DNA of 50,673 nt from Candidatus Dadabacteria bacterium (GTDB taxonomy: Bacteria > Desulfobacterota_D > UBA1144 > Nemesobacterales > Nemesobacteraceae), in assembly GCA_009837205.1 (NCBI GenBank), contig VXTZ01000024.1:3978-54650 (forward strand), given 5' to 3'. How positions within the stretch are numbered: position 1 is the first letter of the stretch; each line of letters begins with the position of its first letter. Positions 23,786 to 50,582 of the stretch are shown piece after piece. The notes under the pieces are model-generated. The model searched no databases, was not told where the DNA came from, and worked only from the letters and a program-made list of their open reading frames with translations. The translations under genes and the position numbers were made by a program.

Positions 23786-23970
23786 AATAGTTGGCCGGTA
23801 TCTTTAGAAAATTTAACCCGGTATTTCTTTCCATTATGTGTTTCTTATAGGAAATACGTCCGAGAAAAAACTCTGTTGCAGTATTATAATGTACACCTAA
23901 GAAGAGAGACTCAAACTCGCAGTCGATCCACGAGAACTAGGTCCAACTATGCTGGATGTACCCTTTATTA

Positions 23971-26238
23971 TTAGATCGCTTCAACAGAAGCCTTGAGTGA
24001 CGCGTAATGAATTGGCGAAACAGTCTCTATCATTTCAAGTAGGTATTTCACATTATTTTGTGTTTCTGGGACCAAGGCTGGATCAAAACCTTTGCCTGGA
24101 GAATGGGATAGATCATTCGCGAATTTAAGTAGAGCTGTTTTCTTGTTTTCGTCGAAATTAACACGCTCAAGTTTGTGATACATGCTTTGACTTCCCGGAT
24201 AATAGAATTCTAGAAAAGCCTCAAGCACCTTTCTGGCAACATTAGGAATGTGGTACGATCCGGCTATCGTTCCGTCGGACTTAAAGAAATAAAGCAATTT
24301 AAATAGATAAGAATACTCACTCTCGTTTTGTAATAGTTCCTTATCAAGGGGTTTGATCGTCGCCTGTCTTGATCCATCAGATTTGAGGTCGCAAAGTAGC
24401 ATGTAATATTTTCTTCGGATAGAATTTGGCCGAATATTCTTGCACCAATTTAATAAAAGCCTCAAAAAGTCAAAATTATGTGTCAGCAAGAACGCTTGCT
24501 TGGCGTTCTTAATCGCATTTTTCAGGAACGAAAATGCCTGGTAAACAGAATTTGAATCCAAGCTCGATACGGGATCATCTATAACGACGATCCCGTTCTG
24601 TAAATCAAAATCCTGATCTTCAAGTTGAACAATAAAGTAGATAAATGTGATGGCAGTTTTTTCGCCTTCGCTCAAGCGCTTCGCCGCCTCACCATTTCTA
24701 AGGATGCGATACCCTTCTCCTTCAGGTTCGAATTGCAATTCATTTCTGCCAAGAAAGGTCTGTAATAGGTCTGTGAGTCTTGCCGCAGCCTGGGTGGTGT
24801 TTGATACTTTTTGGCGGTTTTTGTAAATTCTCTTTTTTAGCGCACCCGTCCCAAGCTCGCCTGTCGCCGAATCACCTTCTTTTATCGCTTCCAATCGCTG
24901 ATCAATTTCCTTGATCTCCGCATCATAGGCTAGCACATCCTCACGGATCGAGGTGAGATGGTGTGTTTCTATCGCATTAGTGGCTGCGCGCACATGTTTT
25001 TCAAAGGATTCAGTCTTGCCATTATGCAAAGCAATTAAATCATTTAGGGCTTCCAGCTTCTTATAAAAAGTAGAAGGATTAATTTCCTTTAAAGTGAATG
25101 GAACCTGCTCCGTTCGGCGCTGCAGTTTGTCTTTTAGACAATCATGAAAATTCCCGAGATCATCTAACAAAGTCGTTTTAGCATCTTCAAAGGCCTCAAG
25201 ATGAGACTGATAATCGCATTGCAACTCATCATACAGTTGCGACTTTATTGGAGTTATAACCGCTTTTACAGTGCTCATAATAAGCTTAGCATCCTGAATT
25301 AAACTCTCGATGCGTTGCTTCAATAGTTTGTCAGATTGATTAAAGTGCCTGCCAAGCGCTTCCATGCGCTCGGCAGTGATATCTTGGCCACAATACTCGC
25401 ACTTCTCAGACGAGTGTTTCTCATGCAGAATTAGGCCTTGCTCAATCCACCCTCCAATATCTGGATTGTCGCGCAGGCGCTGGATCGCTAGCGAGTCCGA
25501 TGTTTGCAATAGAATTGCTTGTGTTGAACTTTCGAGCGCGGAGATAGCTTGTACTAAGTTTAAGCTCACTGGTCGCTCTTCTGACAACAAATTAACTGTG
25601 TCCAGATATATCGCGTCGATTTTTTCCAGAGATTTTTGGCGCAAGGTGGAGCAGTTTTTTGTTAGCTCGGCTTCACTCAGGGAATTCTCTTCTTCCATAG
25701 CTGCGAAAGCCGCCTCAGCATTCGGTTTACGATAAGTTCGTGTCACCTGACCACTTGTTTCCGATGCAATAATCCTCGCTATGTCGGTGAATTTCTTTCC
25801 ACGGAGTACTTCCAATCTTTTTCTTTCATCAGTTTTCGTACGTACTTCTTCTTCAAAAGCACTCAGTGTCTGTTCATCAGTTTGAATTTGTCCAACAAGC
25901 GATTTGTTTTCTTTTCCTATAATAAAGATTGGATTTAATTGGCCCTCAATCTCACCAAGGTTTGAATCTATATAGTCAGAATTGAAAACTCGAATCATGC
26001 AAGGGTAGTATTGACCCTCTTTGAATTGTCCTTCATCGCTCGTGATCTTGTATTTGAGAGAAGGATAATCATCTGAGTTTCCCACATTAAAGCTTGCAAA
26101 CATTCTTGAAAGGGTCGTTTTGCCTGACCCGTTCATGCCATAAAGAATATTAAATCGACCAAAATCCTCCAAGTCAGCCGCTTTTTTGTAGTCATAAAAT
26201 ATACCAAGACCATCTATGCGTTCTATGTTTGTCAACAT
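23971..26238 (-). CDS. zinc-hook ABC-type ATPase, RloC/PrrC-like (AAA_13)
   Basis: A 755-residue ATPase split by a long coiled coil as in SMC/Rad50 proteins. The P-loop GMNGSGKT is at 34-41, the hook C280-EY-C283 sits in the coiled coil, the signature RLSEGEK is at 521-527, Walker B VVIDDPVSSLD at 551-561 and the H-loop LLTHNFD with His587. This fits the AAA_13 group, which includes the tRNA anticodon nucleases RloC and PrrC. The C-terminus has Arg669-x3-Glu673 and His712, the order of the PrrC/RloC nuclease triad, although the E-H distance is 39 rather than ~32. Nuclease activity is therefore an inference. It begins 6 bases after the DUF2130 gene, so both are one operon; base composition is AT-richer than the core. 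Confidence 0.8.
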   Translation of the reverse strand: MLTNIERIDGLGIFYDYKKAADLEDFGRFNILYGMNGSGKTTLSRMFASFNVGNSDDYPSLKYKITSDEGQFKEGQYYPCMIRVFNSDYIDSNLGEIEGQLNPIFIIGKENKSLVGQIQTDEQTLSAFEEEVRTKTDERKRLEVLRGKKFTDIARIIASETSGQVTRTYRKPNAEAAFAAMEEENSLSEAELTKNCSTLRQKSLEKIDAIYLDTVNLLSEERPVSLNLVQAISALESSTQAILLQTSDSLAIQRLRDNPDIGGWIEQGLILHEKHSSEKCEYCGQDITAERMEALGRHFNQSDKLLKQRIESLIQDAKLIMSTVKAVITPIKSQLYDELQCDYQSHLEAFEDAKTTLLDDLGNFHDCLKDKLQRRTEQVPFTLKEINPSTFYKKLEALNDLIALHNGKTESFEKHVRAATNAIETHHLTSIREDVLAYDAEIKEIDQRLEAIKEGDSATGELGTGALKKRIYKNRQKVSNTTQAAARLTDLLQTFLGRNELQFEPEGEGYRILRNGEAAKRLSEGEKTAITFIYFIVQLEDQDFDLQNGIVVIDDPVSSLDSNSVYQAFSFLKNAIKNAKQAFLLTHNFDFLRLLLNWCKNIRPNSIRRKYYMLLCDLKSDGSRQATIKPLDKELLQNESEYSYLFKLLYFFKSDGTIAGSYHIPNVARKVLEAFLEFYYPGSQSMYHKLERVNFDENKKTALLKFANDLSHSPGKGFDPALVPETQNNVKYLLEMIETVSPIHYASLKASVEAI

Positions 26239-26244
26239 AGCGGA

Positions 26245-27516
26245 TCATTCCTCAATTTCTTTATCTTCAAGAAGCGGTAGTTCTAATCCTTCAATTTCCT
26301 GTATCGCTTGTCCCGCAATCCCTTGCAGATCACCATACATGCCAACCGCGCTTTCGATGACACCTTGGATTTGAGCCTCACGCTTGGCCCAAAGACGTGT
26401 CATTGATTTACGTTCGCGATCGAGATCGGCCTGCATGTCGGAAAACTTTTCCACGATAGCTTCCACACGGTGTCGGAACCGTGGGCCAGTCAGATATTGG
26501 TATACAAGCTCCATCTTGGTCCGCTGTCCTTCAGATGCTGTCTTGGAATTGTAAATTTCGATCAGCGATTGGCGCAGTGCGATTGCCAAAGGCACATAAA
26601 ACTGAACCCCTGTCACCCAAACGCCATCAACTAGGCCAAATGTGGTTATGTCTTTAGGGAGAGCTTGAGAGATAATAATTGCGATGTCAGCTTTCGCCAC
26701 ACGCTGATCATCTCGTAACTTCGTAAGCCAGCGGCCCGACCAGTTCTTTGTTCGCTTACTTTCCCAAAGTATTGAGCCGCAGGCATTTCCAGTAGCCGAA
26801 ATGACGCTTTGGATGACATCACCGCCAAACTCCCCTTTCGGAACGGGTTCGATTCTGTCGAGAGGGAATTTAGCTCGGAGCGTCTCTTCAAGGGCAAGTT
26901 CCATGACCTCACCTTGAAGCTGTTGCGAGCCTTGCTCAGCCTTGCGCCTTAGGTCTTCTATCTGCTTTTGCATCGAAGCAATCTGTTGTTCTTTTTCGCT
27001 CACTTTCAGCGATAGCGCTTCTTCAGCTTCCGCTTTGGCCTTTTTGTGGACGGCAGCAATTGATTCCTGAACACGTTTTTCGACCGTGAGATCAAGCTCA
27101 CGCTTGGCATCATCCAGTTCACGCTGTTTTTTCAGCAAATTGGCTTGCTCCTTCTGTGCTTCTTTAAGTTTTTCGTTGCGCTCACTGACAAGACCCTGAA
27201 GTTCCGCGATCTCCTTTATCTTCCCCTCAATCTCATCAGCCACTGCGGTGCGGGCTTTCTTTTTTTCTTCTTCAGAGATCGCAATGCGTTCGGCCTTTAG
27301 CCTTTCAGCAACCTTATCCTCAATCTGCTGCTTGTCTCGCTCAATGTGTTCTTGCTGTTGTCGAATGTCCGCTTCGCGTTTCGCAACTGTGTCTTCTTGT
27401 TCCTTGAGCTTGCGCTCATATTCATCCTTGGTTGCTTCAATGAGTGGAGCCGCCAAGCTCTCGGTGAGTTTGATCTCAGTGGAACAGTTAGGACATATTA
27501 TTGTTGGTTCGATCAT
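26245..27516 (-). CDS. DUF2130 protein with PD-(D/E)XK nuclease motif
   Basis: A 423-residue DUF2130 (COG4487) protein. It starts with a zinc-ribbon-like CPNC (C8, C11), continues with a very long coiled coil (about 30-200, rich in E, K, Q) and then a nuclease-like domain: E210, D233 in GGDVIQS and E252-x-K254 in WESKRTKNW, the PD-(D/E)XK layout. The C-terminal ~100 residues are helical. The ATG lies 49 bases downstream of the tRNA-Arg 3' end in the same direction and the gene is followed after 6 bases by the RloC-like ATPase, suggesting a functional pair. The function of DUF2130 is not established; a role in defence is inferred from fold, partner and location. Confidence 0.82.
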   Translation of the reverse strand: MIEPTIICPNCSTEIKLTESLAAPLIEATKDEYERKLKEQEDTVAKREADIRQQQEHIERDKQQIEDKVAERLKAERIAISEEEKKKARTAVADEIEGKIKEIAELQGLVSERNEKLKEAQKEQANLLKKQRELDDAKRELDLTVEKRVQESIAAVHKKAKAEAEEALSLKVSEKEQQIASMQKQIEDLRRKAEQGSQQLQGEVMELALEETLRAKFPLDRIEPVPKGEFGGDVIQSVISATGNACGSILWESKRTKNWSGRWLTKLRDDQRVAKADIAIIISQALPKDITTFGLVDGVWVTGVQFYVPLAIALRQSLIEIYNSKTASEGQRTKMELVYQYLTGPRFRHRVEAIVEKFSDMQADLDRERKSMTRLWAKREAQIQGVIESAVGMYGDLQGIAGQAIQEIEGLELPLLEDKEIEE

Positions 27517-27565
27517 GCAACGGGAACCCCCCTTCCAAAATTACGGTCTGCACTTATTGGCAACT

Positions 27566-27643
<78 letters not shown>

Positions 27644-42891: not shown

Positions 42892-43620
42892 TCATTCGTT
42901 TAGTAGCATTTCGGCCATACTATCGAGCTTTGTTTTTACAAATCGCCATTCGGGCATTACCTTGTCCAGCAACCGGTAAAATCGCGGACTATGGTTATGC
43001 TCCTGAAGATGACAGAGTTCGTGCAGGATTACATAATCCACGCATTCACGAGGCGCTTTTACTAAGTGTGGATTGAGTAAGATTTTTCCCCGCGGAGAAC
43101 AACTTCCCCACTGCTTTTTCATCTTCAGCAATTGCAAGCTAGGGATTGATTCGAGCCATGTAACTGTATCAAAAAGTGCCTCTATACGGCATTGAAATGT
43201 TTTCCTAGCCCGCTCGCGATACCATTTATCAATTTTCTTCTTAATCACAGCCGGGTCTTTGTTCAACCCCTCAACGCAGAGATATCCTCGAAATAATTTG
43301 ACCGAATCCTCTTTCTTAGCACCACAATCAACCTTAAGTTGGTAACGCCGTCCCAAGTAAAAGAAGCTCTCTCCGCTAACATAACTTCTCGGCAGTACAT
43401 TCTGTCGCAATTTGCGCACTTCGGAAAGATGCCGCTTAATCCAGTTCGCACGTTTAAGAACGGCAGCATGAATTTCATCCATTGATCGGTTTTCTGGAGC
43501 GTTGACCCGAACGCTTCCATCGGGACGGATACGAATCGCTACTTCCTTGAGACGTCTCGACGTGAAGCAAATGTCATACTCAAACTTCTCATCTCCATAG
43601 ACAAAACTCTTTTTAATCAT
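42892..43620 (-). CDS. M48/DUF45 (YgjP-like) metallopeptidase
   Basis: A 242-residue zinc-peptidase-like protein. The active-site motif is HELCH with H200, E201 and H204 (LHELCHLQEHNHSPRFYRLL), and the preceding KKQWGSCSPRGKILLNPHLV is the second DUF45 signature. The family is often found at the 3' end of type I restriction operons. Here the ATG directly follows the hsdR stop with no gap, so the two are translated as a unit. Its role in restriction is not established; regulating or trimming HsdR is one possibility. Confidence 0.85.
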   Translation of the reverse strand: MIKKSFVYGDEKFEYDICFTSRRLKEVAIRIRPDGSVRVNAPENRSMDEIHAAVLKRANWIKRHLSEVRKLRQNVLPRSYVSGESFFYLGRRYQLKVDCGAKKEDSVKLFRGYLCVEGLNKDPAVIKKKIDKWYRERARKTFQCRIEALFDTVTWLESIPSLQLLKMKKQWGSCSPRGKILLNPHLVKAPRECVDYVILHELCHLQEHNHSPRFYRLLDKVMPEWRFVKTKLDSMAEMLLNE

Positions 43621-46600
43621 CTAAAGTGCCCCTTTGCCGACTCCAACTCGAGTAATATGGATTACCCGCTCAATGATTTTCTTTGCATTATCGAGCCCGA
43701 CAATTTCAAATAAAAGCTTCAACAGCGTCTTGCGTATTTCCGCCTCCATGTTCTGAGAACTTATGGAATATGTAGCAACTGCACTTCTAACGACTTTGTC
43801 AATATTAAAAACCAGCTCTGCAATCCTGTCATGTTCTTTTTTGTCTAACCTCTCAAAATATTCTTCTCCAAGTACAAGACGGAAAACACCATAATATGCC
43901 TTGGCATACCGGTTATCATTAAAGACATTCGGAACTGTATCCACCTCGCGGTTACTGATTTTCTCTTCAAGGTCCCTGAGTAGGACATATTGCTTGTACG
44001 GATAATCAAACATTGCATCCGCTTCCTCAATCGCTCGCCTTAAAAGCTCCGAAAACATTTGTTGCGCATAAGGATCATCACCCAGATCCTGCTCTATGAT
44101 TCGCTCGATACGACTTTTTATTACATCAGTCTCATTTCTCGTTTTCTCTTTTGTCCAGTTCTCTGGGTCTTTATTTTGCCCAAGCTCATCCACTAGAATT
44201 GTGCCCTCGGGTTCCCGAACCCCAGTGCCAACAATATGCTTATCAACCAAGCTACTAATCTGTCTTTCGTAAGTACTGTAATCGACGGCTTCATGGGCAT
44301 CCTGTCTAACGATTTTCCTAAGACTGGTAAAAAAACTCAGGTCTTTCTTATAGGTTTGAATCAGTGATTCCGAGAAAAAAGAGTCTTCAAAAAAAGACCG
44401 GGAGGAAAGCGCTGTTTTAAGACACATTCCATACTCTGTTAGTGCTACGTAAAAATCTTCCCGGGTTTTTTGACGCACATCATAATTTCTTCCCTCTGCG
44501 TCTTTTTCGTATTGAGGTATCAAGATGCTACGGTATTGTTCAAGGTCTTTTCTGTTTTCGACCACAACAAAGATTTTCCATAAACGATCATGCAGGACAG
44601 GCAATCTTTTGTATTCGGCACTTACCTGTCGATACAAACCGTTTAAGTCGTCAATGTCATAACCTTGCTGAGTACGATCTGCGAGATCCTGATACTTCTT
44701 AATCGCCGTGTCAAGCTCTTTGAGAATGCCTCGATAATCTATTAGCAAGCCATAATCCTTGGCATCATGCAACCGGTTTACGCGTGCAACGGCCTGAATA
44801 AGATTGTGCTGTTTAAGCGGTTTGTCGATATAAAGCACTGCGTTTCTAGGTTCGTCAAACCCAGTCAAAAGCTTGTCGACAACTATCAGTAAGTCCGGCG
44901 GGTCATCTGTTCCGAACCGTTCAACAACATCCCGTTCATATTCGTGCTGGTTTCCCTGAATATTCTCTCTCCACCACTGCTGAACTTCTGGTACGTCTCT
45001 TTCGTCAATGCTGTAATGTTCCTTGCGAGTATCAGGCGGAGAAATTACCACCGCACTCGACACAAGACCGGTTTTGTCCAAATATTTTTTGTACCGGATG
45101 GCAGAAAGCCTGCTATCGGTAGCAACCTCGCCCTTTAGACCCTGTCCGAGTTTTTTGAAGTTCTCGTTGAAATGAACTGCAATGTCCCAGGCAATCAGCT
45201 CAATGCGATTAGCCGAACCGTATAAAGGCCCCTTATTCCCCCACTTCTTTTTTAGATCGTTTCTCTGCCTGTCGGAGAGACTCGCGGTTATTTTTTCAAA
45301 CCAATTATCAATAGCCTCCTCAGTTACGTTGAGTTCGGATCTACGCTCTTCATAGAGCAACGGGGTCACAGTGTGGTCCTCCACGGCTCTGCGCATTGTG
45401 TAGGTGTGTATAATCGGACCAAATTTCTCGGTAGTCTTCTCTCCTTTGAGAAGCGGCGTACCAGTAAACGCGATGTATGACGCGTTGGGAATGGCATGTT
45501 TCATACGTTCGTGGGTTTCACCGCCATGACTGCGGTGTCCTTCATCCACGATAACAATTATGTCCTCGCTATCGTTTCGGCACTCTGGCAGCTTAGAAGC
45601 CGTATTAAACTTGTCGATAATCGTAAAGATAATCCGTTCATTGCCCTTGCCAATGCGGTTCGCAAGATCCTTTCCTGAAGAGACTTTGGCTTTCTCACCC
45701 TTTTTCACTCCAGCAATTTCTGAACCGAATGCTCCACTCGTCAAGAATGTCCTAGCAAGCTGCTTTTCAAGATCAATGCGGTCGGTTACAACAACAATCC
45801 TACAGTTCTTGAGATCAGGATGTAACAAAAGCGCCTTACAAAGAAAAACCATTGTGAAGGACTTGCCCGAACCGGTCGTGTGCCAGATAACGCCGTCCTC
45901 GCGTCCTCCCTCGGGCTTTTTTTCTTTAATTCTTTTGACAAGAGATTTGACACCGAATGCCTGTTGATAACGGGCGGCGACCTTGCCAACTCTCTGATCA
46001 AATAATAGGTAGAAGCGGATGAACTCAAGAAACTGTTTTGGCGATAGCAGACTGATTATCAGCCTGTCTTGGTCTGTAGTCATCTGTTTCTCGGACCATA
46101 GGCTCTCAAAATACTCTCTAACCTCTAGAGGCCGGTTCGCAAAAATCGTGGCCTTTGCAGGATATGAAAGTGGCGTATTCTTGATTTTCGAAAAATGATC
46201 CTCTTCAAACTCTTCTTCCCGCCACTTGGCCCAGAATTTCTTCGGCGTTGCAGTAGTTCCGTAGCGTCCGTCCGTGCCACTTATGCTTAACAGAAGCTGG
46301 CTATAGATAAACAAATGGGGAATTTCGTCTCTCTTTTGGTTGCGGATATTCTGACTGATACCCTCATCAACAATAGATTTATTGAGACTTCCAGAATCTG
46401 GCCTCTTGGCCTCAATTATAGCCAAAGGAATGCCGTTTACGTAACATACTATGTCCGGTTTCCTAGTATGTGTGCCATCTGATGAAAGAACTTCTAACTC
46501 TTCGGTAACGATAAAGCTATTAGTTGATAGATTTTCCCAGTCAATGATCGAGATAGTTGGCGAATGCTTTTTGCCATCTATAAACTCAGTAACAGTGGTC

Positions 46601-46908
46601 CCTAGGCACAATTTATTGTAAAAGCGCTCGTTTGACGAGAGTAATCCCTCGTGAAGCGAAGAGACCGACAGTTCACGAACAATCTGCTCGATCGCATTAG
46701 AAGAAAGCTGATATTTATTGCCCTTATACTCAAAGCGGCGCTTGCTAAGTTCCTCTATAAGCACATTGGGCATAAGCACTTCTTGCATACTACCCCTAGC
46801 GGAAAGACACTTCTCAGTAGACATAAAACTCCATCCCATCGCTACAAGGGTTTGCAAGGCAGGAATGTGCGAACTGTATTGTTCTGTGGTCTCTGGAGTT
46901 CCGTTCAT
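43621..46908 (-). CDS. hsdR: type I restriction enzyme, R (motor/nuclease) subunit
   Basis: HsdR translocates DNA and cuts it at a distance from the recognition site. In the 1095-residue form the N-terminal nuclease domain has the PD-(D/E)XK order (KPDIVCYVNG, then IIEAKRP), followed by the SF2 motor: P-loop WHTTGSGKSF (about 345), DEGHRSH (DEAD-like box) and FTGTPLL. The helical C-terminal part binds the methylase. The frame is open up to 46986, but ATG at 46908 fits the family start better; a GGAGG site lies unusually far (about 24 bases) upstream of it. Its promoter is probably that of the whole operon at 50.6 kb. Confidence 0.93.
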   Translation of the reverse strand: MNGTPETTEQYSSHIPALQTLVAMGWSFMSTEKCLSARGSMQEVLMPNVLIEELSKRRFEYKGNKYQLSSNAIEQIVRELSVSSLHEGLLSSNERFYNKLCLGTTVTEFIDGKKHSPTISIIDWENLSTNSFIVTEELEVLSSDGTHTRKPDIVCYVNGIPLAIIEAKRPDSGSLNKSIVDEGISQNIRNQKRDEIPHLFIYSQLLLSISGTDGRYGTTATPKKFWAKWREEEFEEDHFSKIKNTPLSYPAKATIFANRPLEVREYFESLWSEKQMTTDQDRLIISLLSPKQFLEFIRFYLLFDQRVGKVAARYQQAFGVKSLVKRIKEKKPEGGREDGVIWHTTGSGKSFTMVFLCKALLLHPDLKNCRIVVVTDRIDLEKQLARTFLTSGAFGSEIAGVKKGEKAKVSSGKDLANRIGKGNERIIFTIIDKFNTASKLPECRNDSEDIIVIVDEGHRSHGGETHERMKHAIPNASYIAFTGTPLLKGEKTTEKFGPIIHTYTMRRAVEDHTVTPLLYEERRSELNVTEEAIDNWFEKITASLSDRQRNDLKKKWGNKGPLYGSANRIELIAWDIAVHFNENFKKLGQGLKGEVATDSRLSAIRYKKYLDKTGLVSSAVVISPPDTRKEHYSIDERDVPEVQQWWRENIQGNQHEYERDVVERFGTDDPPDLLIVVDKLLTGFDEPRNAVLYIDKPLKQHNLIQAVARVNRLHDAKDYGLLIDYRGILKELDTAIKKYQDLADRTQQGYDIDDLNGLYRQVSAEYKRLPVLHDRLWKIFVVVENRKDLEQYRSILIPQYEKDAEGRNYDVRQKTREDFYVALTEYGMCLKTALSSRSFFEDSFFSESLIQTYKKDLSFFTSLRKIVRQDAHEAVDYSTYERQISSLVDKHIVGTGVREPEGTILVDELGQNKDPENWTKEKTRNETDVIKSRIERIIEQDLGDDPYAQQMFSELLRRAIEEADAMFDYPYKQYVLLRDLEEKISNREVDTVPNVFNDNRYAKAYYGVFRLVLGEEYFERLDKKEHDRIAELVFNIDKVVRSAVATYSISSQNMEAEIRKTLLKLLFEIVGLDNAKKIIERVIHITRVGVGKGAL

Positions 46909-47011
46909 ACTATTCTTTACTTTATCTATGCCTCCTTTGTCGAAACTTTCTAGGCAAATCCGCAATGAGTCCCTAAGAGGCCACAACTCCCTTTATTCTT
47001 ATGCATTCCAT

Positions 47012-47199
47012 TTAGATGCCAAAGTAGTCTATCCACCAAGGTATCCGCGGTTTGTTGTTTAAGATATAATTGACGATGTATCATCGGGCAGGTTTTTGGC
47101 TTCTTTTTCTTCATTCAACTCGTGATCATCCTCAAGAACATTTAAAGCGTTAAAATCCTGCTTTAAGAGATAAACAGAAAACGAATGGCTCTTACTCAT
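47012..47199 (-). pseudogene. DUF6119/TIGR04141-like protein, frameshifted N-terminal remnant
   Basis: An ATG at 47199 overlaps the hsdS stop (ATGA), which indicates a coupled gene. It reads MSKSHSFSVYLLKQDFNALN and onward for 46 codons to TAA at 47058-47060. A -1 shift in TCAATTATATC continues as YILNNKPRIPWWIDYFGI up to TAA at 47012-47014. Both parts together match the first ~60 residues of the sporadic DUF6119/TIGR04141 family (normally ~500 residues or more) as I recall it. The remainder is absent; hsdR follows. So a gene between hsdS and hsdR was lost or is broken. Family assignment is from memory of the pattern. Confidence 0.55.
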
Positions 47200-48413
47200 T
47201 TAGTGCTTTCCATTTTTACACGCCGGTTACCAGTTAAAAGTTGTTGCATTAGAGCTTTTTTCTCTTGATGCAATACAGTGGCAATAGCTTTGAATTTAGC
47301 TATTTCTTCATCCATTGTCCTTAATATGATCCCTATAGTTCGTTGTGTCTGGATTGAAGGAACATGCACTGTCATTTGGCGAAAATATCGCTGGGAGAGC
47401 ACATAGCGTTGTCCGCTCCCTTCACACAACTGATATGCCTGTCTAAAAAAATGAGGGGATTTGAATGCGTAAGCACTGAAGTTTAAATCCCACAACTCAT
47501 GAAGACGAAGCCTGACAACATGATAACTGTATACCGATCCACAGATATTCTCGGTAGCAACTGCGGAATGTGCAATATCACTTCGTGTTTCAGAAGATGG
47601 GGTAAAAAAAATATCTCCTTTTTGGATATCGCAACTTGCAATTTGACGATCTGGGGCAGTAACCCAGTGATCTAAATCCTTGTCAAAAATATAATCCTTG
47701 TTTAAAACATCAAGATAATTCAGGAGCCTAACAGATTTCTCATCAGCCTTCGTTTTCTTATCCACACCAGCACCAGAGATTTCTCCAAGCTCACCAATAG
47801 ATACTTCTGACCAACTTTCCCCAAAAACCCTTTCCTCACCAAAAAACAACTGCTGCATCAGTGCTTTTTTTTGAGCTTGACTGTTGGAAATAAGCTCTTC
47901 CACAACTTCAATAGCTTGATCCCAAGTAGAAAGGATTTTAGCTATTTTGCGTTGCTCAAACAGCGGTGGCGCTACTATACGTAGTTTTTTTACATCATTG
48001 GAGTTAATTGCGGGATAATTCGAACCAACTACAAGCGCATGAAACTGTGCTCGTAACTGGTGAGTGAAAAGAAGATGAAATATGTATGATTCTTCAAAAG
48101 ATTTGTTTAATTTGACCACTGCAAACCCTGTAGAAGCAATACATTTTCGGTGATCGGAACCCACCCTAGCGAAACCCAGAAGATTGGGTCTTACCGTTGA
48201 AATCAGGATATCTCCTTCTCCAACAATACGCCGAGCCCGCGATGGAGCATCTGCAAACTTACACTTCTCTAGTGGCCCAACAATTCTTCCAGGTTCTACA
48301 TTGGACAATGAGATATATTCAAACTCGAAGTCAGGTTTGGTTTTCGATCCAAGGTTTTGCAGATCAATCTCGGCAATATCCCCCAAGAGCACCTCACGCC
48401 ATCCATCAATCAT
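47196..48413 (-). CDS. hsdS: type I restriction-modification specificity subunit, full length
   Basis: HsdS recognises the DNA target through two variable domains (TRDs). The 405-residue protein has TRD1 (about 1-150), a first conserved helix region with EQRKIAKILSTWDQAIE and KKALMQQLFFGE, TRD2 (about 200-355) and a second with TQRTIGIILRTMDEEI and KKALMQQLLTGN. The repeated KKALMQQL blocks show the expected internal duplication. The gene follows hsdM after 44 bases and ends in an ATGA overlap with the broken DUF6119-like gene. A second, half-size S gene lies upstream of hsdM. Confidence 0.92.
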   Translation of the reverse strand: MIDGWREVLLGDIAEIDLQNLGSKTKPDFEFEYISLSNVEPGRIVGPLEKCKFADAPSRARRIVGEGDILISTVRPNLLGFARVGSDHRKCIASTGFAVVKLNKSFEESYIFHLLFTHQLRAQFHALVVGSNYPAINSNDVKKLRIVAPPLFEQRKIAKILSTWDQAIEVVEELISNSQAQKKALMQQLFFGEERVFGESWSEVSIGELGEISGAGVDKKTKADEKSVRLLNYLDVLNKDYIFDKDLDHWVTAPDRQIASCDIQKGDIFFTPSSETRSDIAHSAVATENICGSVYSYHVVRLRLHELWDLNFSAYAFKSPHFFRQAYQLCEGSGQRYVLSQRYFRQMTVHVPSIQTQRTIGIILRTMDEEIAKFKAIATVLHQEKKALMQQLLTGNRRVKMESTK

Positions 48414-48457
48414 ACCAGACCTCTTTTTGGGGTTTAGTTATCTTGGTCAACTGATTT

Positions 48458-49972
48458 TTACTCATAGCCTAATTCTTTTAAGTATCCCTCCATTTCTATT
48501 TCCAGCTTAGCCAACTGGGCTTTTAGTTTTTCCCGTTCTTTCTTAACGGTCATTAGATCAATTTCCTCTTCCTCCTCAAAGGTATTGACATAGCGAGGAA
48601 TGTTGAGGTTATAATCGTTTCCCCTGATTTCATCGACTGTTGCCAGATACGCATATTTATCGAGATGCTCTCGATTATGGCAAGTAACAACTATCTTTTT
48701 GATATTTTCCTCTGTTAGCTGATTCTGGTTCTTACCGTCCTTGTACTCACGGCTGGCTTCCACAAAAAGTACATCCGTGTTCGGCTTGTTACACCTGAAC
48801 ACTAATATCGCAGCGGGAATCCCAGTGCCGTAAAACAGTTTTTCCGGCAGACCAATAACGATATCCAACAGATTTTCTTCAATGAGTCGCTTTCTGATTT
48901 TACCTTCGGACGCACCGCGGAATAATACACCGTGTGGCACAACAATACCCATACGTCCGGTTCTGGGTTTGAGAGTTTCGATCATGTGTAGAACAAAGGC
49001 GTAATCTCCTCTGGTCTTTGGTGGCAAACCACGCCGAAAACGACCGAACCTATCCTCCTCCGCCTTTTCTCGACCCCATTTGTCAAGACTGAACGGAGGA
49101 TTAGCAACAACAACATCAAAAAGCTTCAGTCCATTCTCATCGCCAAGAAGTTTAGGATTGCGTATAGTATCACCCCATTCTATACGGTGATTGTCTTCAC
49201 CATGAAGGAACATATTCATCTTAGCAAGCGCCCAAGTGCTACCAATGGCCTCTTGGCCGTAAAGTGAGTAATGTTTGTGAGAAATATCGCTTGTTTTTTG
49301 AACCTGAAGGCCACATTTTATTAGTAATGAACCGGAACCGCAGGCCGGATCGCAGATCTCATCTCCTTCTTTGGGCGCAATAAGTTCGGCAATCAGTTCT
49401 GAAACCTCAGGCGGAGTGTAAAACTCTCCTGCTTTCTTGCCGCCCGTAGCTGCAAAATTTCTGATGAGAAACTCATAGGCGTTTCCGATCACGTCAAGAT
49501 TACCGATTCGGCTTGGGCTCAAATCCAGCTCGGGCCGTTCGAAATCTTCCAGAACATGGCGGAGAATATCGTTCTTCTGTGCCTCATCACCAAGCCGTGT
49601 ACTGTTAAAACTTATATCCTGAAACACATCCCGAAGCTTGTGAATGTTGGCCTCCTCAATTGCATGGAGTGCTTTGTCAATGCGCTCGCCATTTCCAGGC
49701 TCGTAGCGGTGTTCGTAAAGAGCGTAGAAGCTGGCATCCTCGGGAAGAACAAAGCGTTCGTTCTTCATGAGTTCTTCAATAAATTCTGGATGTTCCCCAT
49801 GCTCTTCTTTATACTTAGTATAGTGATCTTTCCATACGTCTGATATGTACTTCACAAACAACATGGTCAGAATGTAATCCTTGTAAATACTTGGATCAAC
49901 GATTCCCCGAAAACTGTCGCAGGCCCCCCAGACAACCTGATTGATTTCTTCCTGATCAATAAAATCTTCCAT
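48458..49972 (-). CDS. hsdM: type I restriction-modification methyltransferase subunit
   Basis: HsdM methylates adenine in the target as M2S and forms the core of the restriction complex. The 504-residue protein has the helical N-terminal domain, the SAM motif DPACGSG (208-214) and the catalytic NPPF (291-294), the gamma-class N6-adenine layout. FYTPPEVSELIAEL before motif I is typical. Length is normal. It starts 4 bases after the half-size S gene and precedes the full-size hsdS, so all are in one operon. Confidence 0.95.
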   Translation of the reverse strand: MEDFIDQEEINQVVWGACDSFRGIVDPSIYKDYILTMLFVKYISDVWKDHYTKYKEEHGEHPEFIEELMKNERFVLPEDASFYALYEHRYEPGNGERIDKALHAIEEANIHKLRDVFQDISFNSTRLGDEAQKNDILRHVLEDFERPELDLSPSRIGNLDVIGNAYEFLIRNFAATGGKKAGEFYTPPEVSELIAELIAPKEGDEICDPACGSGSLLIKCGLQVQKTSDISHKHYSLYGQEAIGSTWALAKMNMFLHGEDNHRIEWGDTIRNPKLLGDENGLKLFDVVVANPPFSLDKWGREKAEEDRFGRFRRGLPPKTRGDYAFVLHMIETLKPRTGRMGIVVPHGVLFRGASEGKIRKRLIEENLLDIVIGLPEKLFYGTGIPAAILVFRCNKPNTDVLFVEASREYKDGKNQNQLTEENIKKIVVTCHNREHLDKYAYLATVDEIRGNDYNLNIPRYVNTFEEEEEIDLMTVKKEREKLKAQLAKLEIEMEGYLKELGYE

Positions 49973-49976
49973 TTCT

Positions 49977-50582
49977 CTAATCTCCCTTCTGTTTTGCTAA
50001 AGCCATAACTGCTAAGGCACGCATCTGGCGGTTTCTGTTTCCAATCATATCGAGAAGTAGTTGTTTTTCCCGAACCGCTGCCTCGTGAAAAACAACTATG
50101 GCTTCTTGCGTACTAATGTTCGGCACCGAAATAGGTAAATTCTCCAATACCTGCCGCCTAATGCTAGTGATGTATGAACCTGTTGCCAAAGTAGACAAAT
50201 ATTGCTGTGCCGAAACTTGATTGATTTGCCACGCGATGAATGCCGGCAATACTGGGATTTCATCCCTCAGGCGGATCAGGAACAGATGGGGGGAACAAAC
50301 AGCTTTCAAATTGACTTCATTTAAACAGGCCGCAACGTTTCGATTGCCATGCGCAGTAAAAAGTATGTCCCCCCTCTTCAACCACTCAGGCTTGCGGCGA
50401 CTAGTTAAACGGGTGCGTACAAGATTTTCCCAGTTCAACCCAGTTTCGGTGTTAATGTCTTTGATCTGAACAACAGCGACCTCGCTATTAGGATCCTCTT
50501 TAATCTTACCGCGAAACGGGTAACCGGAGATAATGGTTGACAAATTGCCAAGCTTCGTTAGTTTTATTTCCTCATATGTCAT
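49977..50582 (-). CDS. half-length type I specificity-like subunit
   Basis: A 201-residue protein with one TRD-like domain (TKLGNLSTIISGYPFRGKI, then RGDILFTAHGNRNVAACLN, PAFIAWQIN) and one helical conserved region (TQEAIVVFHEAAVREKQLLL). This is half of a normal HsdS. Single-TRD S proteins are known to dimerise in some type I systems, but here a full HsdS is also present in the same operon. The gene is first in the operon and its stop is 4 bases before the hsdM ATG. Either an alternative specificity or a regulator of assembly is possible. The ATG lies downstream of an AT-rich promoter region. Confidence 0.8.
   Translation of the reverse strand: MTYEEIKLTKLGNLSTIISGYPFRGKIKEDPNSEVAVVQIKDINTETGLNWENLVRTRLTSRRKPEWLKRGDILFTAHGNRNVAACLNEVNLKAVCSPHLFLIRLRDEIPVLPAFIAWQINQVSAQQYLSTLATGSYITSIRRQVLENLPISVPNISTQEAIVVFHEAAVREKQLLLDMIGNRNRQMRALAVMALAKQKGD

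What the first reader, a model, noticed from the sequence alone, without database searches (positions are those of the whole stretch)
23971..27516. Two-gene module: DUF2130 nuclease-like protein plus zinc-hook RloC-like ATPase
The sequence shows two AT-rich genes 6 bases apart: a coiled-coil protein with PD-(D/E)XK residues (D233, E252-x-K254) and an ABC-type ATPase with a CEYC hook. Both are placed at the 3' end of tRNA-Arg. RloC and PrrC are known tRNA anticodon nucleases in phage defence. Pairing an RloC-like ATPase with a DUF2130 nuclease is not a system I know. This is the best candidate for an undescribed defence module.
Basis: partly seen in the sequence, partly recalled or inferred. 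Interest (0 to 1): 0.62.

Follow-up and report, generated by a model that had tools for sequence, protein, structure and literature searches.

The report
Nuclease–RloC defence cassette at tRNA-Arg
A 3.8-kb insert beside an arginine tRNA gene carries only two genes, a standard RloC-type tRNA-cutting suicide enzyme and an uncharacterised DNA-cutting-type protein (DUF2130) that elsewhere sits directly in front of many different, already known anti-phage systems.

Summary
Two AT-rich genes 6 bp apart lie on the minus strand. They fill a 3.78-kb insert (23791-27567) at the 3' end of tRNA-Arg. Ten sister genomes lack this insert at the same site. Gene 2 is not merely RloC-like: it meets every sequence criterion published for RloC (ABC ATPase, CX2C zinc hook, Arg-X3-Glu-X38-His with Ser before His). 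Gene 1 is a DUF2130 protein with a predicted PD-(D/E)XK core and invariant D233, E252 and K254.

The pairing is not a fluke, but it is not a dedicated two-gene system. In 55 genomes with DUF2130, six have a full RloC, and in five of the six it lies within 6 kb of DUF2130 (four of five without the window; 0.03 expected at random). The RloC partners belong to unrelated subfamilies. None of 14 genomes carrying relatives of this RloC encodes DUF2130.

Other DUF2130 genes lead complete defence systems: IetAS, GmrSD, SIR2, Gabija (GajA) and OLD-like ATPases. Two are joined to type I HsdR. DUF2130 therefore looks like a recurrent companion nuclease in front of swappable defence genes.

Proposed mechanism (inferred): DUF2130 cuts invading DNA, and RloC, known to be switched on by linear DNA, then disables tRNA.

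The parts
26245..27516 (-). DUF2130 protein (423 aa): N-terminal CxxC (C8/C11), long coiled coil, predicted PD-(D/E)XK nuclease domain
   Evidence: PF09903 274 bits; C8, C11, D233, E252, K254 invariant in 22 sequences; AlphaFold core pLDDT 90-96 with helix-strand-strand-strand-helix-strand order; best fold matches are restriction-type nucleases, E about 0.01
26611..26919 (-). Predicted PD-(D/E)XK core (residues 200-302) with D233 and E252-S-K254
23971..26238 (-). RloC-type anticodon nuclease (755 aa): ABC ATPase with zinc hook and C-terminal ACNase (HEPN-type) domain
   Evidence: PF13166 439 bits; PADLOC PDC-S06 841 bits; motifs; Rad50/SMC-like fold matches
25390..25401 (-). Zinc hook C280-E-Y-C283
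   Evidence: Both Cys invariant in 14 sequences and kept in the other DUF2130-linked RloCs
24103..24234 (-). Putative ACNase triad R669-x3-E673-x38-H712 (S711 before H712)
   Evidence: matches the Arg-X3-Glu-X36-52-His rule of PMC2610378
23791..27567 (.). Whole insert (3777 bp, GC 0.438) absent from ten sister loci, bounded by the mgtE-like gene and the 3' end of tRNA-Arg; no integrase and no direct repeat found
27566..27643 (-). tRNA-Arg(TCT), insertion site; with tRNA-Pro it lies directly upstream of the cassette on the same strand

Best explanation
This is a horizontally acquired two-gene defence cassette inserted at the 3' end of tRNA-Arg. The second gene is an RloC anticodon nuclease: a Rad50-like, zinc-hook ATPase that responds to linear DNA and cuts tRNA, shutting translation and aborting infection. 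The first gene, DUF2130, is a PD-(D/E)XK DNase-type protein on a long coiled coil. It is a recurrent companion placed in front of interchangeable defence genes. The most likely joint mechanism is that DUF2130 cuts invading DNA, and the linear ends then switch on RloC as a second-line killer. Shown by computation: gene content, insert borders, motifs, the non-random and facultative adjacency, and other defence systems in the same position. Known for other RloCs from papers: ACNase activity, activation by linear DNA, zinc-hook control. Inferred: DNase activity of DUF2130, its target, and the functional hand-off to RloC.
For: The insert holds exactly these two genes and ten sister loci lack it. 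They are 6 bp apart, with an SD-like GAGGA over the DUF2130 stop. RloC definition met. DUF2130 nuclease residues are invariant and the predicted core fits PD-(D/E)XK. RloC lies within 6 kb of DUF2130 in 5 of the 6 DUF2130 genomes that have a full RloC; without the window 4 of 5, expected 0.03, P about 8e-9 under random placement. DUF2130 leads RloC, IetAS, GmrSD, SIR2, GajA and OLD-like genes at gaps of about 60 bp or less, and overlaps hsdR twice. GkaRloC needs linear DNA, and a DNA-break inducer activates RloC in vivo (PMC3874168).
Against: RloC of this subfamily occurs without DUF2130 in every relative checked, so DUF2130 is not required. The random-placement null ignores clustering of defence genes in islands. 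The two genes differ in GC (0.415 and 0.484), so they may have come together recently. DUF2130 is also frequent in phage replication modules and on conjugative plasmids without a defence partner, so its role may be broader. No activity is reported for any DUF2130 protein in the papers found.
Confidence: 0.42

Rival explanations
1. Bystander model: RloC is a complete stand-alone defence gene, and DUF2130 is an independent defence or mobile-element nuclease. They are neighbours because both accumulate in defence islands and at the same tRNA hotspot. They share transcription but no mechanism.
For: None of 14 RloC genomes has DUF2130. DUF2130 neighbours vary widely: type I R-M, Gabija, IetAS, GmrSD, SIR2 and toxin-antitoxin genes. 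RloC has its own switch and nuclease (PMC2610378, PMC3874168). The tRNA-Arg site holds unrelated inserts in two sister genomes.
Against: The insert contains only these two genes, tightly spaced. Adjacency is found with several RloC subfamilies that share only about 20% identity. The closest DUF2130 relatives of the window's (up to 69% identity) are also RloC-linked.
Confidence: 0.38
2. DUF2130 is a regulator or safety partner of the toxic neighbour (it silences or licenses it), as type I R-M silences PrrC, rather than an effector. Its first position before many different effectors would reflect a common gating role.
For: DUF2130 precedes many unrelated effectors. It overlaps hsdR near RloC in G418 and G425. 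An R-M protein silences PrrC (PMC3874168).
Against: The predicted active-site residues D233/E252/K254 are invariant, which points to catalysis. RloCs of this type lack DUF2130 elsewhere. RloC is reported to be kept in check by its own ATPase (PMC3710099).
Confidence: 0.12
3. DUF2130 is a phage- or plasmid-derived DNA-processing or anti-competitor nuclease carried along by chance, with no role in cellular defence.
For: 26 DUF2130 genes in viral contigs, several next to DNA polymerase A, SNF2 helicase or Prim-Pol genes, and many on conjugative plasmids.
Against: Many of the non-phage DUF2130 genes of the window type are followed directly by a defence gene; the phage copies in the tree fall outside the cellular clades.
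Confidence: 0.08

Closest known systems
RloC anticodon nuclease (Davidov and Kaufmann 2008, PMC2610378)
   Same: ABC ATPase motifs, CX2C zinc hook, Arg-X3-Glu-X36-52-(Ser)His triad, 658-897 aa
   Different: A DUF2130 gene lies 6 bp upstream; RloC is described as a single gene, rarely linked to R-M
PADLOC PDC-S06 (phage defence candidate, single gene)
   Same: 841 bits over the full length, model PDLC04894
   Different: Appears to be catalogued as a single gene (name PDC-S); no DUF2130 partner model in the library matched
PrrC-type I R-M (EcoprrI)
   Same: ABC ATPase plus Arg-Glu-His ACNase; a type I R-M locus lies about 16 kb away in this window
   Different: Twice the size, has a zinc hook, not embedded in the hsd operon here
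RloC linked to type I R-M with RhuM/Fic-type genes (PMC3710099)
   Same: G425 and G418 show RloC in or beside hsd genes, with RhuM/Fic in G425
   Different: In both, DUF2130 follows hsdR directly; that paper does not mention DUF2130
Rad50-Mre11 / SbcCD and Lamassu LmuA-LmuB (coiled-coil ATPase plus nuclease)
   Same: Same general logic: zinc-hook or SMC-like ATPase paired with a nuclease; RloC fold matches include Rad50 and Lamassu complexes
   Different: The partner is a PD-(D/E)XK-type DUF2130 protein, not an Mre11 phosphoesterase or LmuA, and RloC already carries its own RNase

Membership tests
RloC | ABC ATPase motifs (Walker A, signature, Walker B/D-loop) | tested here: met
   YGMNGSGKTT, LSEGEKT, VVIDDPVSSLD in the window and equivalents in 13 relatives
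RloC | CX2C zinc hook inside a helical insert splitting the ATPase | tested here: met
   C280-E-Y-C283, both Cys invariant, flanked by long predicted helices
RloC | Arg-X3-Glu-X36-52-His, often Ser before His | tested here: met
   R669-x3-E673-x38-H712 with S711; rule in PMC2610378
RloC | Length 658-897 aa | tested here: met
   755 aa
RloC | Anticodon nuclease activity switched on by linear DNA and ATP | not testable with these tools
   Needs expression and a tRNA assay; shown for GkaRloC in PMC3874168
PrrC | About 341-416 aa, no zinc hook, inside a type I hsd operon | tested here: not met
   755 aa with hook; own insert, hsd genes about 16 kb away
DUF2130 (PF09903) | Score above the curated cut-off over most of the model | tested here: met
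   274 bits against 26.7, positions 3-253 of 255
PD-(D/E)XK nuclease superfamily | Conserved D...ExK motif on the common core | tested here: met
   D233, E252, K254 invariant in 22 sequences; core order fits at pLDDT 90-96
PD-(D/E)XK nuclease superfamily | Significant match to a solved PD-(D/E)XK structure | tested here: inconclusive
   Best hits BstEII, MspJI, SPARDA nuclease, McrC, with probability up to 0.98 but E 0.009 to 0.1 and low whole-chain TM-scores
Dedicated DUF2130-RloC two-gene system | The two genes obligately co-occur | tested here: not met
   0 of 14 RloC genomes have DUF2130; 49 of 55 DUF2130 genomes have no full RloC
Dedicated DUF2130-RloC two-gene system | Adjacency exceeds chance | tested here: met
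   4 of 5 genomes besides the window, 0.03 expected; the null ignores island clustering
Lamassu (LmuA/LmuB) | LmuB SMC-like ATPase plus LmuA nuclease | tested here: not met
   Only a coiled-coil level match of DUF2130 to LmuB, E 5e-5; no LmuA match listed

The most novel reading that the evidence does not exclude
DUF2130 is a general leading component of swappable defence cassettes: one coiled-coil PD-(D/E)XK nuclease, tipped by its own invariant N-terminal CxxC, primes or licenses whichever effector sits behind it (RloC, IetAS, GmrSD, SIR2, Gabija, OLD-like). In the RloC version, the two CxxC tips could even join in a mixed zinc hook so that DNA cutting and tRNA cutting happen in one complex.
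Probability: 0.25. Interest if true: 0.75.

Novelty: new variant of a known kind. Interest (0 to 1): 0.5.

Why it matters
RloC has been an orphan ACNase whose natural trigger in infection is unclear; the published trigger is linear DNA or DNA breaks. A physically linked DNase-type gene would supply that trigger and makes the question directly testable. More broadly, DUF2130 (no activity reported in the papers found) recurs directly in front of several unrelated known defence systems, so assigning its function would bear on many loci that present tools annotate only by the downstream gene.

Tried and rejected
(1) Pairing as pure coincidence: the first checks (plasmid hits; 23 RloC loci; 14 RloC genomes) gave no pairs and pointed that way. 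The survey from the DUF2130 side overturned it. (2) Obligate two-gene system: rejected. (3) Lamassu or Mre11-Rad50 membership: rejected (for Lamassu; DUF2130 is not an Mre11-type phosphoesterase by Pfam). (4) Solved relatives by sequence: none useful. (5) Integrase or att repeat of the insert: none found. (6) Promoter and terminator scan of the insert: nothing above shuffles. (7) Phage and viral collections for the pair: 26 viral DUF2130 genes, none next to this ATPase; the viral ATPase hits are distant. (8) My DUF2130 HMM with HMMER's bias filter missed one DUF2130 clade; rerun without the filter.

Full report
What is there. On the minus strand, DUF2130 (26245-27516, 423 aa) is followed after 6 bp by an ATPase gene (23971-26238, 755 aa). 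An SD-like GAGGA overlaps the DUF2130 stop codon. DUF2130 starts about 50 bp after tRNA-Arg on the same strand, and the sequence shows a TATAAT box just before tRNA-Pro, so read-through from the tRNA-Pro/tRNA-Arg unit is likely (inference). The promoter scan found no site on this strand.

A clean insertion. In ten genomes of the same genus the tRNA-Pro/tRNA-Arg pair and the mgtE-like gene flank the same spot. In eight of them only a short spacer separates tRNA-Arg from mgtE; in two, unrelated inserts lie there. The window's insert is therefore 23791-27567, 3777 bp, GC 0.438 against 0.527 for the flanks. It contains only these two genes. No integrase and no direct repeat was found. Among the 58 genomes held for the class (and phylum) no other has both genes: G021 has an ATPase of a related type without DUF2130, and G014 has DUF2130 without the ATPase.

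The ATPase is an RloC. It matches AAA_13 at 439 bits and PADLOC's candidate PDC-S06 at 841 bits. The published RloC definition (PMC2610378) asks for ABC ATPase motifs, a CX2C zinc hook in a helical insert, Arg-X3-Glu-X36-52-His with a frequent preceding Ser, and 658-897 aa. The window protein has all of these: C280-E-Y-C283, R669-x3-E673-x38-H712, S711, 755 aa. In 14 sequences both Cys, R669 and S711-H712 are invariant, and position 673 is Glu or Asp. The predicted model matches Rad50/SMC heads and Lamassu complexes. [quoted passage not shown] its nuclease domain is a HEPN domain (PMC3710099).

DUF2130. Residues C8, C11, D233, E252 and K254 are invariant in 22 sequences. AlphaFold gives a long coiled coil and a confident core (pLDDT 90-96 over most of residues 200-320) whose order of elements fits PD-(D/E)XK. 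The best fold matches are restriction-type nucleases (BstEII, MspJI, SPARDA nuclease, McrC, BamHI) at probability up to 0.98 but E about 0.01 or weaker, so the assignment rests mainly on motif plus topology. No paper found describes a DUF2130 activity.

Is the pairing real? From the RloC side, no: 23 loci with relatives have no DUF2130 in the held flanks, and 14 whole genomes carrying such RloCs have none anywhere (the same family search does ring in other genomes). From the DUF2130 side, yes: of 55 genomes with DUF2130 only six have a full RloC-like AAA_13 (E below 1e-20), and in five of the six it lies within 6 kb of DUF2130. Without the window this is four of five, where random placement expects 0.03 (P about 8e-9). 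That null ignores the clustering of defence genes, so it overstates the significance. The arrangements are DUF2130-RloC (window; G092, gap 52), hsdS-RloC-hsdR-DUF2130-nSTAND3 (G418), RloC-RhuM/Fic-hsdR-DUF2130 (G425), and RloC upstream of a DUF2130 of another clade, with one small ORF between (G299). All partner RloCs keep hook and triad but share only 18-27% identity, except the G418/G425 pair at 83%. The window's DUF2130 is closest (up to 69% identity) to those of G418 and G425, while the RloC of the window is not, so the partners were exchanged or joined more than once.

The larger pattern. DUF2130 is followed on the same strand by other known systems: IetA-IetS (G240, G345), GmrSD/HEC-06 (G349), SIR2 (G333), GajA plus a UvrD helicase (Aliarcobacter plasmid), an OLD/AriA-like ATPase-TOPRIM protein (G298), nSTAND3/PDC-S73 (G418), and type I hsdM/hsdS on two Chryseobacterium plasmids. 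In the tree the closely related DUF2130s of G092, G349, G240 and G345 precede RloC, GmrSD, IetAS and IetAS respectively (G345 by sequence identity of its two downstream genes' ends and lengths to G240's). DUF2130 is also common alone or with other neighbours on rhizobial conjugative plasmids and in phage replication modules.

Interpretation. The best account is a mobile two-gene defence cassette: a standard RloC behind a companion PD-(D/E)XK nuclease that recurs in front of interchangeable defence genes. A plausible division of labour is that DUF2130 cuts foreign DNA and the linear ends switch on RloC; this step is inferred. The simplest rival, two independent defence genes sharing a hotspot, is nearly as likely. 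A type I R-M locus (hsdR, hsdS, hsdM, second hsdS fragment) lies in the same window at 43621-50582. An RloC-R-M interaction in trans has been discussed, although the tested RloC did not need R-M for DNA-break activation (PMC3874168).

Verdict. Observation confirmed; interpretation partly supported; new variant of a known kind. The more interesting lead is DUF2130 as a shared front gene of many defence cassettes, which no paper found here describes.

Noticed in passing
window 42892-50582 (-): Type I R-M locus: HsdR (43621-46986), HsdS (47196-48413), HsdM (48458-49972), a second HsdS fragment (49977-50582) and a YgjP-like metallopeptidase (42892-43620), in an AT-rich stretch next to tRNA-Thr.
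   Followed up: partly
L230 6926-7739 and L233 1149-2920 (genomes G015, G019): The same tRNA-Arg/mgtE site carries other, unrelated inserts in two sister genomes, so it is an insertion hotspot.
   Followed up: partly
window 27560-27575: The window's tRNA-Arg gene ends in an encoded CCA next to the insert, whereas the sister genes without the insert do not; the element may have supplied the tRNA 3' end.
   Followed up: no
L105-L109, L191-L213: DUF2130 is a recurrent gene of viral contigs, several times beside DNA polymerase A, SNF2 helicase, Prim-Pol or PD-(D/E)XK genes; the DUF2130 proteins tried match no PHROGs family.
   Followed up: partly
L121 2589-7377, L169 5490-10148: Closely related DUF2130 genes directly precede an IetA-IetS pair in two genomes; in G349 (L168) the same DUF2130 type precedes GmrSD and in G092 (L119) RloC.
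   Followed up: partly
window 27484-27495 (codons 8-11 of DUF2130): Invariant CxxC at the very N terminus, just before the long coiled coil: a possible second zinc hook or zinc knuckle at the tip of DUF2130.
   Followed up: no
L035 3275-4843, L185 4262-5860, L241 4280-5842: In three Bradyrhizobium plasmids an AAA-family ATPase of about 525 aa lies directly upstream of DUF2130, another recurrent neighbour.
   Followed up: no
L032 5001-7429, L044 5977-9096: RloC relatives broken into several frames or interrupted in Neorhizobium galegae and Brevundimonas abyssalis, perhaps decay of a costly defence gene or sequencing error.
   Followed up: no
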